A program made the position numbers and the translations under genes. The notes beneath the pieces were generated by a model. That model saw nothing but the letters and a program-made list of their open reading frames with translations. It was not told the DNA's origin and made no database searches. 64,000 nt of DNA from an uncultured Pseudothermotoga sp. (lineage in GTDB: Bacteria > Thermotogota > Thermotogae > Thermotogales > DSM-5069). Below, piece by piece: positions 3,043 to 57,133 of the stretch (position 1 is its first letter; each line of letters opens with the position of its first letter). The stretch covers positions 1 to 64,000 of the forward strand of contig CALKJI010000006.1 of assembly GCA_937995655.1 (NCBI GenBank), written 5' to 3'.

Positions 3043-3071
3043 TATACATATACATTCGTATACTATATAAT
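3043..3071 (+). promoter_or_regulatory. Promoter of the DUF1659/DUF2922 operon
   Basis: A consensus -10 TATAAT (3066-3071) lies 17 bp after a weak -35 TATACA (3043-3048). Transcription would start about 45 nt before the GTG at 3121. The short leader can form a GGGAG/CTCCC stem (about 3073-3094). Confidence 0.55.
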
Positions 3072-3120
3072 GGGGAGAAAAACCCGGGTGCTCCCAAAAG
3101 AAAACCAAGGAGGTGTTAGA

Positions 3121-3315
3121 GTGAAACAGCTCAGGATTGTTTATAACACTGGTGAATTGTCTGAGTCAGGTCGTCCCATCTTGCGCAGAAACAACATCGA
3201 TGTACAAGATTCGGTGGACTCTGCGAAAGGTCTACAGATTGCGCAGATCATCGATTCGCTGACAAACTACACAGTTCAAGAAGTTTATTTGATAGTCACC
3301 ACACAGATCATGTAA
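3121..3315 (+). CDS. DUF1659 family small protein
   Basis: The GTG at 3121 follows AAGGAGGTG at ideal spacing. The upstream ATG at 3070 overlaps the -10 box and was rejected. The 64-residue product (MKQLRIVYNTGELSESGRPIL...) looks like DUF1659, a family of about 70 residues known mainly from Firmicutes, where DUF1659 and DUF2922 genes sit side by side. There is no signal peptide, membrane segment or catalytic motif. Predicted strands flank a helix near residues 35-47 (SAKGLQIAQIIDSL). It is followed after 13 nt by the DUF2922 gene. Function is unknown for the family; a structural or partner role beside the downstream sigma-like protein is inference. Confidence 0.72.
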   Translation: MKQLRIVYNTGELSESGRPILRRNNIDVQDSVDSAKGLQIAQIIDSLTNYTVQEVYLIVTTQIM

Positions 3316-3328
3316 GGAGGTGTAAAGG

Positions 3329-3538
3329 ATGAAAAGATTGTTCTTAGACTTTGTAGATCAAACAGAAGGTAAAAGAAGAAGGATAACGATCCAAGCGCCC
3401 AAGGAAAACATTACAAGCCAGGAGGTTTCGCAGGCTATGGATATGTTCATAACCCTTGGAGTAGTACCCAACACATATGCAAAAGACCGAGCGGCAATAG
3501 TAGAAACAACTACAAATGAGTTTTTTAATTTGCTTTAG
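3329..3538 (+). CDS. DUF2922 family small protein
   Basis: This is a 69-residue protein; the ATG at 3329 has a GGAGGTG ribosome site. The N-terminus MKRLFLDFVDQTEGKRRRI, the central helix (SQEVSQAMDMFITLG) and the tail AAIVETTTNEFFNLL fit DUF2922. Its general plan (strand, basic strand, helix, terminal strand) resembles that of the DUF1659 partner, so the two could be ancient paralogs or form a heteromer (inference). It is cytosolic with no catalytic residues evident. The next gene begins 11 nt later. Confidence 0.72.
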   Translation: MKRLFLDFVDQTEGKRRRITIQAPKENITSQEVSQAMDMFITLGVVPNTYAKDRAAIVETTTNEFFNLL

Positions 3539-3549
3539 GAAGTGGTTGC

Positions 3550-3795
3550 ATGAACTTGTTTGAGACCTTTCATATAATCGGCAGGATCGTTTCTTTAGGA
3601 GTCTTTCTTGTAGAAAGACCAAAGGATGGAGCAAAGAAAAAGGAAGAAGTCAAGCAGATGGTTTTTGATTTTCTGAATGATTTCAACATAAGGCTGCCTA
3701 TACCAGATATCGTACTGTCCTATGTACTTGATTTTATGATAGACAACTTGGTTGATTTCCTCAACGAAACCTTATGGAAGAAAAAGGCAGCGTGA
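3550..3795 (+). CDS. Small helical protein of unknown function
   Basis: This is an 81-residue protein with ATG at 3550 after GGAAGTGG. It has a short hydrophobic N-terminal stretch (residues 8-20), a basic linker (RPKDGAKKKEEVK), then two amphipathic helices (QMVFDFLNDF and IPDIVLSYVLDFMIDNLVDFL). In related Firmicutes cassettes the third small gene codes for a YvrJ-type membrane peptide; this protein is not clearly YvrJ. The arrangement loosely recalls the C-terminal half of LLH-type phage holins, but the membrane segment is weak. I do not recognise the family. Position alone suggests that it works with its neighbours. Confidence 0.6.
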   Translation: MNLFETFHIIGRIVSLGVFLVERPKDGAKKKEEVKQMVFDFLNDFNIRLPIPDIVLSYVLDFMIDNLVDFLNETLWKKKAA

Positions 3796-4190
3796 AGAAA
3801 GAAGGGAGGGGTTCAACCCCCTCCTCTTTTGAAGAGTATTTTGAGAAATACCAGCCTTTGTTGAAAAAGATCTGTAAAGATTTTTGGGAAAGGTATTGTT
3901 ATAGGATCGACTCGTGGAACGATCTGTACCAAACGATACAGTATTTATTCATTTATGCATACAACATTTGGCAGCCAGAAAAAGGGTCTTTTGAAGCTCA
4001 TTTAGAGAGAGTTTTGAAATACAAATTGAAGTCTATGCTCAGCGGAGAATATGCACCTTGGAGTAGATGTAGTCCTTTCACATTTTTGAAGGATAGGAGG
4101 ATACAACTTTATCTTGTAGAAGAAGAGTTCATAGAACAAAGTCTTTATAACTGTCAAAACATGAAAGATCCAGAGTTGGTAGTGAATTAA
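3774..4190 (+). CDS. Sigma-70 region-2-like protein lacking region 4 (RsoA-like?)
   Basis: This is a 138-residue protein. Residues 18-85 read like sigma-70 region 2: FEEYFEKYQPLLKKI, then WNDLYQTIQYLFIYAY (compare DLYQEG...I..AI), then QPEKGSFEAHLERVL (compare DP.KG.F..YL). No region-4 helix-turn-helix follows; the last ~50 residues are unassigned. A protein with only sigma region 2 recalls RsoA (YvrHa) of Bacillus subtilis, which pairs with the separate promoter-binding protein SigO. The ATG at 3774 overlaps the previous gene by 22 nt and has no good ribosome site; a GTG at 3792 is an alternative. A terminator-like hairpin lies within codons 11-18. Confidence 0.6.
   Translation: MEEKGSVKKEGRGSTPSSFEEYFEKYQPLLKKICKDFWERYCYRIDSWNDLYQTIQYLFIYAYNIWQPEKGSFEAHLERVLKYKLKSMLSGEYAPWSRCSPFTFLKDRRIQLYLVEEEFIEQSLYNCQNMKDPELVVN
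3805..3830 (+). terminator. Terminator-like hairpin inside the sigma-like ORF
   Basis: GGAGGGG (3805-3811) pairs with CCCCTCC (3818-3824) across a 6-nt loop, and TCTTTT follows. It sits 9 nt after the stop codon of the small helical protein but within the first codons of the sigma-like ORF. It may act as a partial terminator that keeps the last gene low. Confidence 0.55.
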
Positions 4191-4215
4191 AGTTCATAGG
4201 TAAATGGAAAAACTC

Positions 4216-4242
4216 AAAAAGCCCCCAAGAGGGGCTTTTTTG
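4216..4242 (+). terminator. Rho-independent terminator of the DUF1659/DUF2922 operon
   Basis: A perfect 10-bp stem (AAAAAGCCCC / GGGGCTTTTT) with a 5-nt loop runs directly into a T tract, 25 nt after the stop at 4190. Confidence 0.9.
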
Positions 4243-40837: not shown

Positions 40838-41461
40838 TTGAATATAAAGTATCGTTTGAGGACTAAGAGAGTTGAGGAACTTGTGAATCTTGCGCAAGCG
40901 GGGCTCAAAGAAGCTCTTGATCTTCTGGTTGAAAAATATTATCCCATGGTCATAAAGATATCTTCAAGGTATTATGCACCATGGGCTGAGTTTCAAGACT
41001 TGGTGCAGAATGGATTGGTCGGTCTGATCAAGGCTGTTTATTATTATCAACCAGACAAAAGTGGTTTTTCTTCATTCGCTTGGAGAAGTATTGAATCTGA
41101 GTTGAAGTCCTTTTTGACATTTTTGAATCGAAAGAAAAACAGAATGCTTACAGATGCAGTGAGTGTAGATCTGCTCACTAGTGAAGATTCTGAAGAGACG
41201 GGCTATTCCCTCGAAGATCTTTCATTCTCTACGGCACGTCAAGCAATAGCAAGTTTGATCATGGAAAGGATTAACGATCATTTGTCAGATTTGGAGGTTC
41301 AGATAATCCAAATGTGGATCGATGGAACAAGTTATGAGCAAATAGAACAGCAGCTGGGTGTCAATTTCAAGAAGGTGGATAATACTGTACAGAAACTTAA
41401 AAGGACGTTGAAGGAGAGGGTAGATCCGCTACTTTTGAGAATGTTCTTTGATGAACTCTAA
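40838..41461 (+). CDS. Sigma-70 family factor, SigH-like
   Basis: This 207-residue protein starts at a TTG. Region 2 is clear: EALDLLVEKYYPMVIKIS, then FQDLVQNGLVGLIKAVYYYQPDKSGFSSFAWRS. Region 4 is reduced but present: LSDLEVQIIQMWIDGTSYEQIEQQLGV with the helix-turn-helix and NTVQKLKRTL. The outline fits the stationary-phase SigH/Spo0H group. It is co-transcribed with the HAD phosphatase; no anti-sigma gene is adjacent. It overlaps the opposing TPR gene by 4 nt at the 3' end. Confidence 0.88.
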   Translation: MNIKYRLRTKRVEELVNLAQAGLKEALDLLVEKYYPMVIKISSRYYAPWAEFQDLVQNGLVGLIKAVYYYQPDKSGFSSFAWRSIESELKSFLTFLNRKKNRMLTDAVSVDLLTSEDSEETGYSLEDLSFSTARQAIASLIMERINDHLSDLEVQIIQMWIDGTSYEQIEQQLGVNFKKVDNTVQKLKRTLKERVDPLLLRMFFDEL

Positions 41462-55093: not shown

Positions 55094-57133
55094 TTGAATG
55101 ACCAGGTCGTTGAACTGAGTCTATCGGACATTTTTAAGATCTTCAAAAGACGTTTCTGGTGGTTTTTGGGGATCTTTCTTGTGGTATCTTTTGGAACTTT
55201 GGTCTACCTTTTGTTTTTCACAAAGCCCATCTATGAAGCAAGTGCCCAACTTCTTGTCATAAGTAGCGGGCAAACGGCCAACATTCCAAGTGCTATAACT
55301 CAGCTGGTAGGTGTCATTAGCTTACCTAGTGTGGGTGTGGGGATTGGAACTGAGATGGAGTTGATAAAGAGCAGACAGAACATAGAAAAGTTGATCGACC
55401 AACTCAATTTGATGGAATTGTTCAAGGGTAACAAAGAAATCCTGGTCCAAGACATAGTGAGAACGATTAGCGAAAGGTTGAAGATAGAGAATGTCAAAAA
55501 TACATCGATAATAAAGATATCAGTGGAATTTGAAGATCCAGAGATTGCGGCAAAGATCGTCAATTCTTTGATCGATATCTACTTAGATATGAGAAGTCGA
55601 TTGACCGTTAACGAATACAGTGCACGTGTAGATTTCATAGAAAGACAACTTCCTCGTCTTGAACAAGAACTGAAAGATGTGGAAGACAAGCTAAGAAGGT
55701 TCAAAGAGCAAAATCAAATCTACTCACTGAGCGATCAAGCAGCAAAGCTTGTCGAAGGTATAGCAAGGTTCGATGCGATGGCTTATGAGACAAAGGTGTC
55801 TATAGAACAAGTTAAAACTGCAATAAAGGCTGCGGAAGACATGCTGAAAAAGGTCGATCAAAAGATCATATCATCGGAGACGATCAGCACAAATCCTGTG
55901 GTTCAACAGCTCAGGTCAAAACTCGTAGAGCTTCAGGTGGAACTTTCCGCTTTGCTTCAGACATATTCCGAGACAGACAGAAGGGTTGTCTCGTTGAAGA
56001 AACAGATTCAAGAAACCCAGGATCTTTTACAAAAAGAGATCAGCAAGGTCATTAGTGCAGAGATTCAAACAATAAATCCTGCTTATTCTGAACTCTACAC
56101 AACCTGGATTTTGAAGCAGACAGAACTTCAAGTACAGCAAGCGACCTTAACAGCTGTCGAGAAGATCAGAGATGAATACCTTAAGAAAGTCGCGGTCATC
56201 CCATCGATTGAGCAGAAACTCTTTGAGTTAGAGAGAGATAGACAGGCAAAGCAAGCCGCGTATTTGGCTCTGTTGAGCCAGTACGAACAAGCAAAGATAG
56301 GTGCCGCTGGCACCGTCAGCAATGTTCGTGTGATAAACAATGCTGTGGTACCAAGTATACCTTCAAAGCCAAATAAGAAACTTTTATTGGCTATAGGTGG
56401 CGTGCTTGGGATCTTTTTAGGCCTGGTCATGGTGTTTGTGAGGGATTTGACAGACAGAAAGTTCCGAGCACTGGACGAGTTACAAAGACTCTTTCCAAGG
56501 ATACCGATCTTAGGCAAGATATCTAACATTAGAGTAGCCAGGAATGAAGATCTTTTAGTTACATTTGAATGTGAAGGTAAAGAAGTTTGTGATGAATTTA
56601 AGTATCTAGCTGCAAAGATGCTAGATGAACCTGTAAAGGTTCTTGGTTTAACAAGCTCTGATAAGAAAGAAGGGAAGACCTTTGTCGCATCCAATCTTGC
56701 CTATGTGTTTTCAAAGATGGCACAGAAGACTTTGCTGATCGATATGAATGTCCGATCACCCATGGTTTCAAAGGTTTTCTCAATCGAAGCTGATCGTGAC
56801 ATAGTTGATCTAACTAAAGGAACGGTACCAGAAAACTGTATAGTGAGATTTTCTGAAAATTTGCATATCTTGACTCTCAACGGGAAAGATAGTTGGTTTC
56901 TCAGTGACCCAAAGCTTTTTGAATTCATGAAAGAATTTGCACAATCCTACGACAGGATCATCGTAGATATGCCACCACTCAGCTGTGCAGAAGGCATTCT
57001 TGCAAGTAAGGTCGTAGGTAAATACGCCTTGGTAATCTGTTTTGGCAAGAGCGAGAAAAATCTTGTTAATTCTTTGGTGCACTCAACTTTTGCAAGTAAG
57101 TTAATTGGTATCATAGCAAATAAAACTGTGTGA
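55094..57133 (+). CDS. Wzz/BY-kinase-like polysaccharide co-polymerase without tyrosine tail
   Basis: This 679-residue membrane protein starts at a TTG behind GGAGGTGT. N-terminal Wzz part: membrane segment ~residues 22-42, then a long coiled coil (residues ~170-400; EQELKDVEDKLRRFKEQNQ), and second membrane segment LLLAIGGVLGIFLGLVMVFV (~430-450). The cytosolic BY-kinase domain has Walker A SSDKKEGKTFVASN, Walker A' LLIDMNVRSP (the usual second Asp is Asn) and Walker B IIVDMPP. The tyrosine cluster normally found at the C-terminus is absent, ending at ANKTV. It probably controls surface polysaccharide chain length; kinase activity is doubtful. Confidence 0.85.
   Translation: MNDQVVELSLSDIFKIFKRRFWWFLGIFLVVSFGTLVYLLFFTKPIYEASAQLLVISSGQTANIPSAITQLVGVISLPSVGVGIGTEMELIKSRQNIEKLIDQLNLMELFKGNKEILVQDIVRTISERLKIENVKNTSIIKISVEFEDPEIAAKIVNSLIDIYLDMRSRLTVNEYSARVDFIERQLPRLEQELKDVEDKLRRFKEQNQIYSLSDQAAKLVEGIARFDAMAYETKVSIEQVKTAIKAAEDMLKKVDQKIISSETISTNPVVQQLRSKLVELQVELSALLQTYSETDRRVVSLKKQIQETQDLLQKEISKVISAEIQTINPAYSELYTTWILKQTELQVQQATLTAVEKIRDEYLKKVAVIPSIEQKLFELERDRQAKQAAYLALLSQYEQAKIGAAGTVSNVRVINNAVVPSIPSKPNKKLLLAIGGVLGIFLGLVMVFVRDLTDRKFRALDELQRLFPRIPILGKISNIRVARNEDLLVTFECEGKEVCDEFKYLAAKMLDEPVKVLGLTSSDKKEGKTFVASNLAYVFSKMAQKTLLIDMNVRSPMVSKVFSIEADRDIVDLTKGTVPENCIVRFSENLHILTLNGKDSWFLSDPKLFEFMKEFAQSYDRIIVDMPPLSCAEGILASKVVGKYALVICFGKSEKNLVNSLVHSTFASKLIGIIANKTV

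What the first reader, a model, noticed from the sequence alone, without database searches (positions are those of the whole stretch)
3043..4242. Compact DUF1659-DUF2922-unknown-sigma-fragment operon
Four small genes under one promoter and terminator end with a protein that looks like sigma-70 region 2 and has no region 4. In Bacillus subtilis a similar split (RsoA with region-2-like sequence, SigO with the DNA-binding part) is a two-subunit sigma factor, and DUF1659/DUF2922 genes pair in Firmicutes without known function. This may be an undescribed split-sigma or regulatory system in a Thermotogales genome, with the small DUF proteins as partners or products.
Basis: partly seen in the sequence, partly recalled or inferred. 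Interest (0 to 1): 0.7.

Follow-up and report, generated by a model that had tools for sequence, protein, structure and literature searches.

The report
Conserved DUF1659-DUF2922 operon with sigma fragment
This four-gene bacterial operon belongs to an unstudied gene module shared by several phyla, in which two tiny related proteins travel with holin-like membrane proteins, wall-cutting enzymes and a sigma-factor-like regulator, so it looks more like a regulated release or lysis cassette than a split sigma factor.

Summary
The operon is real: promoter at 3043, terminator at 4216-4240. It encodes DUF1659 (GTG at 3121), DUF2922, an 81-aa protein (ORF3) and a 138-aa protein (ORF4). ORF4 is a genuine sigma-70 region 2 domain without region 4: 41 of 46 homologues match Sigma70_r2, and its profile and predicted fold both find sigma factors. 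The same cassette occurs across Thermotogota. DUF2922 is in 82 of 103 genomes; all four genes are in 38 of 63 genomes examined. ORF4 is the most dispensable gene. In Bacillota and Atribacterota, DUF1659-DUF2922 is followed by YvrJ, which matches phage holins, and often by a peptidoglycan hydrolase. A sigma-like or ComK-like gene is nearby in some loci. DUF1659 and DUF2922 look like diverged duplicates. In Thermotogota the cassette lies beside surface-polysaccharide clusters (27/40 loci versus 1/40 controls). No SigO-like region-4 partner was found, and similarity to RsoA is weak. The split-sigma reading is possible but unsupported. A regulated holin/hydrolase-type release module, as in UviA-UviB-endolysin, fits better, but ORF3's holin nature and the DUF functions are inferred, and this genome's operon has no linked hydrolase. 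No paper in the searched library describes the module.

The parts
3043..3071 (+). Promoter-like TATACA-N17-TATAAT
   Evidence: 10 of 12 consensus matches; such matches are also expected by chance, but the position is conserved in relatives
3052..3073 (+). Conserved promoter block ACATTCGTATACTATATAATGG
   Evidence: Near-identical upstream of the operon in many genomes of families f1, f3 and f11; the only site in this whole genome at up to 3 mismatches
3073..3095 (+). Leader inverted repeat GGGAG...CCCGGG...CTCCC; relatives have a perfect palindrome of different sequence at this place
   Evidence: palindromes of 10 nt or more in 43 of 69 upstream regions, 11.6 expected from shuffles
3121..3315 (+). 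DUF1659 protein, 64 aa (GTG start)
   Evidence: PF07872 E 8.8e-9; RBS 3107-3113 read directly
3329..3538 (+). DUF2922 protein, 69 aa, predicted beta-beta-alpha-beta
   Evidence: PF11148 E 1.2e-15; AlphaFold2 pLDDT 88
3550..3795 (+). ORF3, 81 aa, conserved ERPGDGxxKKEEV motif, possibly holin-like
   Evidence: 57-row alignment A2; 15 of 57 rows weakly match Phage_holin_6_1, best E 0.0078
3774..4190 (+). ORF4, 138 aa (or 132 aa from GTG 3792), sigma-70 region 2 without region 4
4216..4240 (+). Intrinsic terminator, readable on both strands
   Evidence: fold -14.8 kcal/mol, z -2.6

Best explanation
The operon is the Thermotogota form of a cross-phylum module of two small related proteins (DUF1659, DUF2922), a short holin-like or membrane-associated protein, and in many loci a peptidoglycan hydrolase and a dedicated regulator. 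Shown by computation: the module and its gene order, ORF4 as a sigma region 2 domain, and the polysaccharide-locus association in Thermotogota. Inferred: DUF1659 and DUF2922 form a hetero-oligomer that is exported by, or works with, the membrane protein. ORF4 binds core RNA polymerase through region 2 and tunes the operon's own conserved promoter. The output is controlled passage or release of something through the envelope, tied in Thermotogota to the surface-polysaccharide machinery. It would work like the sigma-holin-endolysin-cargo clusters of clostridia (UviA-UviB-amidase-Bcn5).
For: DUF2922 in 82/103 Thermotogota genomes; order DUF1659-DUF2922-ORF3-ORF4 conserved. Bacillota/Atribacterota: of 61 DUF2922 loci, 54 have DUF1659, 46 YvrJ, 17 a peptidoglycan hydrolase, 9 a sigma gene within 2 kb. 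YvrJ matches a PHROGs holin family (E 5e-8) and the Atribacterota LLH-like protein another (E 6e-8). A YvrJ homologue in Bacillus phage KonjoTrouble is annotated holin and sits directly before an endolysin. Geobacillus/Peribacillus plasmids carry ComK-like regulator-DUF1659-DUF2922-YvrJ-M15 peptidase or amidase. In seven Thermotoga-type genomes a glucosaminidase lies just downstream. DUF1659 and DUF2922 profiles align at probability 94.7, P 6e-8; unrelated-profile controls at most 0.3. Polysaccharide genes in 27/40 operon loci versus 1/40 control regions, p 3e-10. Precedent: PMC9527704.
Against: ORF3 is not shown to be a holin: matches are weak, it is marginal against the Atribacterota LLH-like protein (P 0.004), and it shows no long transmembrane stretch by eye. 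The window's operon has no linked hydrolase. Most of the 61 non-Thermotogota loci show no hydrolase or sigma gene nearby. The DUF1659-DUF2922 similarity is weaker with Bacillota profiles (probability 22 for Bacillota against Bacillota, 4 and 69 in mixed comparisons). Polysaccharide genes were not detected next to the Bacillota loci, so that link is lineage-specific and could reflect a shared hypervariable region. ORF4 binding to RNA polymerase is untested.
Confidence: 0.38

Rival explanations
1. Two-subunit sigma factor: ORF4 supplies region 2 and an unlinked protein supplies region 4, as RsoA and SigO do in Bacillus subtilis.
For: ORF4 is region 2 only; Bacillaceae sigO-yvrJ-rsoA loci share the YvrJ family with this module; the operon promoter block is conserved.
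Against: No SigO-like protein in the genome by Pfam region-4 profiles; weak similarity to RsoA; ORF4 absent from many operons.
Confidence: 0.15
2. ORF4 is a degenerate sigma that only occupies RNA polymerase, acting as competitor or anti-initiation factor for the operon or for the neighbouring polysaccharide genes.
For: Region 2 kept, region 4 absent in most Thermotogota; the HTH tail occurs only in one subclade, families f8 and f11.
Against: No direct evidence; the tree cannot say whether the tail was lost or gained.
Confidence: 0.15
3. The cassette is a selfish or phage-derived passenger that accumulates in hypervariable polysaccharide loci without a shared pathway.
For: Holin and hydrolase relatives; plasmid copies beside integrases; decayed, truncated or split copies.
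Against: Broad conservation in the phylum, with conserved order and promoter.
Confidence: 0.15
4. DUF1659 and DUF2922 act directly in surface-polysaccharide synthesis or export, and ORF4 regulates that locus.
For: 27/40 loci versus 1/40 controls next to sugar transferase, flippase, GT4 or Wzz genes, median distance 2.3 kb; window neighbours are glycosyltransferases.
Against: No such neighbours detected at the Bacillota/Atribacterota loci.
Confidence: 0.12

Closest known systems
[quoted passage not shown]
   Same: A region-2-only sigma protein encoded with a small accessory protein; YvrJ occurs in both settings; SigO-RsoA also drives yvrJ (PMC8103513)
   Different: No region-4 partner found; ORF4 is longer and only weakly similar to RsoA; B. 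subtilis has no DUF2922 match (control)
UviA-UviB-endolysin-Bcn5 cluster (clostridial sigma plus holin modules)
   Same: Sigma-like regulator, small holin-like protein, peptidoglycan hydrolase in many relatives, small proteins without an obvious signal peptide (PMC9527704)
   Different: The DUF proteins are not bacteriocins of known type; ORF3 is not shown to be a holin; no linked hydrolase in the window
DUF1659-DUF2922-YvrJ triad of Bacillota
   Same: Same two DUF families in the same order, third gene a short protein with a hydrophobic N-terminal segment
   Different: Third gene is ORF3 instead of YvrJ (no significant profile similarity); region-2-only sigma as fourth gene

Membership tests
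Sigma-70 family | Region 2 domain | tested here: met
   41/46 homologues match Sigma70_r2; profile hits FliA at 5.8e-8; top Foldseek hits are nearly all sigma factors, best probability 1.00 though E 0.06
Sigma-70 family | Region 4 DNA-binding domain | tested here: not met
   Absent in the window protein; present as an HTH tail only in families f8 and f11
SigO-RsoA two-subunit sigma | Homology of ORF4 to RsoA | tested here: inconclusive
   hhalign probability 5.8%, P 0.0065, aligned over the start of region 2; RsoA set of only four sequences
SigO-RsoA two-subunit sigma | Separate region-4 partner in the genome | tested here: not met
SigO-RsoA two-subunit sigma | Joint transcription activation | not testable with these tools
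   Needs biochemistry
DUF1659 / DUF2922 families | Match above the Pfam gathering score | tested here: met
   35.6 bits against 24.1 and 57.5 against 25.5
Holin (ORF3) | Match above threshold to a holin family | tested here: not met
   Phage_holin_6_1 best E 0.0078 among 57 homologues; no PHROGs match for the two homologues tried
Holin (ORF3) | Membrane pore formation | not testable with these tools
   Needs an assay
Sigma-holin-endolysin release clusters (UviA type) | Linked peptidoglycan hydrolase | tested here: not met
   None in the window operon; present in 17/61 Bacillota/Atribacterota loci and 7 Thermotoga-type genomes

The most novel reading that the evidence does not exclude
A widespread undescribed envelope-passage system of duplicated DUF1659/DUF2922 proteins plus a holin-like component, controlled in Thermotogota by a stand-alone sigma region 2 protein that initiates from its own conserved promoter without region 4 or with a non-canonical partner, and coupled to surface-polysaccharide loci.
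Probability: 0.2. Interest if true: 0.8.

Novelty: new variant of a known kind. Interest (0 to 1): 0.52.

Why it matters
Two Pfam families of unknown function, present in most Thermotogota and many Bacillota, would gain a first testable context: a holin, hydrolase and regulator neighbourhood, a likely shared origin, and a link to polysaccharide loci. If ORF4 initiates transcription without region 4, it would test how little of a sigma factor is needed.

Tried and rejected
No PDB sequence relative of the window's DUF1659 or DUF2922 proteins, and no convincing fold match for the DUF2922 model. No DUF2922 homologue in the phage collection by tblastn, although two DUF2922 proteins match PHROGs family phrog_21372. 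BhlA holins could not be compared: none found in the 12 Bacillaceae genomes tried. ORF3-YvrJ homology was tested and not supported (hhalign 0.7%). Rfam found nothing for the multi-copy promoter elements. The automatic region-4 labels in the tree run were wrong for f8 and f11 and were not used; the rooting does not tell loss from gain. My DUF2922 probe for one search was a consensus written from memory; it served only to fetch loci, which were then confirmed by profiles.

Full report
Observation. The four ORFs, the promoter-like site and the terminator are present as described. The DUF1659 gene starts at GTG 3121, not at ATG 3070, which lies in the -10 element. ORF4 overlaps ORF3 by 22 nt, or by a GTGA start/stop overlap if it starts at 3792.

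ORF4. Alone it is sub-threshold for Sigma70_r2 (E 1.1e-3). Its homologues settle the matter: 41 of 46 match Sigma70_r2, best 6.8e-9. A profile of the family finds sigma factors in the PDB, FliA at 5.8e-8. AlphaFold2 gives three confident helices over residues 19-89, and Foldseek returns almost only sigma factors, although its E-values are weak. Region 4 is absent. Members from families f8 and f11 carry a C-terminal HTH tail. The Thermotogota ORF4 proteins form one clade (support 99/98), with the tailed members in one subclade; the direction of change is unresolved.

Distribution. DUF2922 occurs in 82 of 103 Thermotogota genomes. Among 63 genomes examined, 62 have DUF2922, 55 DUF1659, 55 ORF3, 42 ORF4 and 38 all four. 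These counts come from fetched loci and are not a full census. ORF4 is therefore the most dispensable gene. Some operons are split between DUF2922 and ORF3 by inserted genes.

Other phyla. In 61 loci from Bacillota, Atribacterota and a few others, DUF1659 is near DUF2922 in 54, YvrJ in 46, a peptidoglycan hydrolase in 17, and a sigma-like gene within 2 kb in 9. Flanks are short in some loci, so these are lower bounds. YvrJ and an LLH-like protein match PHROGs holin families. A YvrJ homologue in Bacillus phage KonjoTrouble is annotated holin and sits directly before an endolysin. Plasmids of Parageobacillus, Peribacillus and Geobacillus carry a ComK-like regulator, DUF1659, DUF2922, YvrJ and an M15 peptidase or amidase. 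In Thermotoga-type genomes a glucosaminidase follows the operon.

DUF1659 and DUF2922. Their Thermotogota profiles align at probability 94.7 and P 6e-8. Comparisons that involve Bacillota profiles are weaker (4 to 69), and unrelated controls give at most 0.3. Shared origin is likely, not proven. The DUF2922 model is beta-beta-alpha-beta with no convincing PDB match.

ORF3. It has a conserved ERPGDGxxKKEEV motif and only weak similarity to Phage_holin_6_1 and to the Atribacterota LLH-like protein (P 0.004). It is not related to YvrJ by profile. Its holin-like role rests mainly on position and is inference.

Polysaccharide loci. Sugar transferase, GT4, Wzx or Wzz genes lie within about 10 kb in 27 of 40 operon loci versus 1 of 40 control regions of 20 kb drawn from the same genomes (Fisher p 3e-10; positions; family checks). 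Loci are not phylogenetically independent, so the p-value is optimistic. In the window, glycosyltransferase genes lie just upstream and a Wzz-type gene at 55094. Such genes were not detected in the other phyla.

Promoter. A block resembling ACATTCGTATACTATATA-TGG precedes the operon in many genomes of families f1, f3 and f11, followed by a palindrome whose sequence changes between genomes. It also precedes separated ORF3-ORF4 units. This genome has one such site at up to 3 mismatches. Related genomes G064 and G065 carry extra copies in multi-copy intergenic elements. G065 has no DUF2922 or ORF4 match, so the block does not strictly depend on ORF4, unless that incomplete assembly misses it. Whether ORF4 recognises the block is unknown.

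Split sigma. Region-4 profile matches in this genome fall in SigA-, FliA- and ECF-type sigma factors, the sigma gene at window 40838, or unrelated HTH proteins. RsoA-like proteins from Bacillaceae sigO-yvrJ-rsoA loci align with ORF4 only weakly. The hypothesis stays open but unsupported.

Mechanism. The best-supported reading is a regulated envelope-passage or release module resembling sigma-holin-endolysin-cargo clusters such as UviA-UviB-amidase-Bcn5 (PMC9527704). The steps that are shown are anatomy, homology of ORF4, conservation and neighbourhood. The steps that are inferred are RNA polymerase binding, membrane action, DUF oligomerisation and cargo. The only paper in the searched library that names DUF1659 or DUF2922 is a phenotype-prediction study, judged from its title and abstract.

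Noticed in passing
L298, L300-L308 (G064), L287, L297, L299 (G065); ends also at L312, L316 (G000): Multi-copy intergenic elements share the operon's promoter block, carry variable palindromes and end in a motif like ATTGSCATAGGTCTAATC; no Rfam match.
   Followed up: partly
L085, L080, L068, L072: Two operon copies, some decayed, lie at the ends of or near polysaccharide clusters, 10-16 kb apart.
   Followed up: partly
L330, L331, L332: Plasmid DUF1659-DUF2922-YvrJ-hydrolase modules have a ComK-like gene upstream and a site-specific integrase downstream.
   Followed up: no
L065, L071, L072: In genus g32 the third and fourth genes are replaced by a short helical protein and a 67-aa protein, neither with a convincing family.
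   Followed up: no
window 40838-41461: A second, full sigma-70 family gene in the same window.
   Followed up: no
L025, L135: DUF2922 proteins match PHROGs family phrog_21372 of unknown function, so phage members exist.
   Followed up: partly
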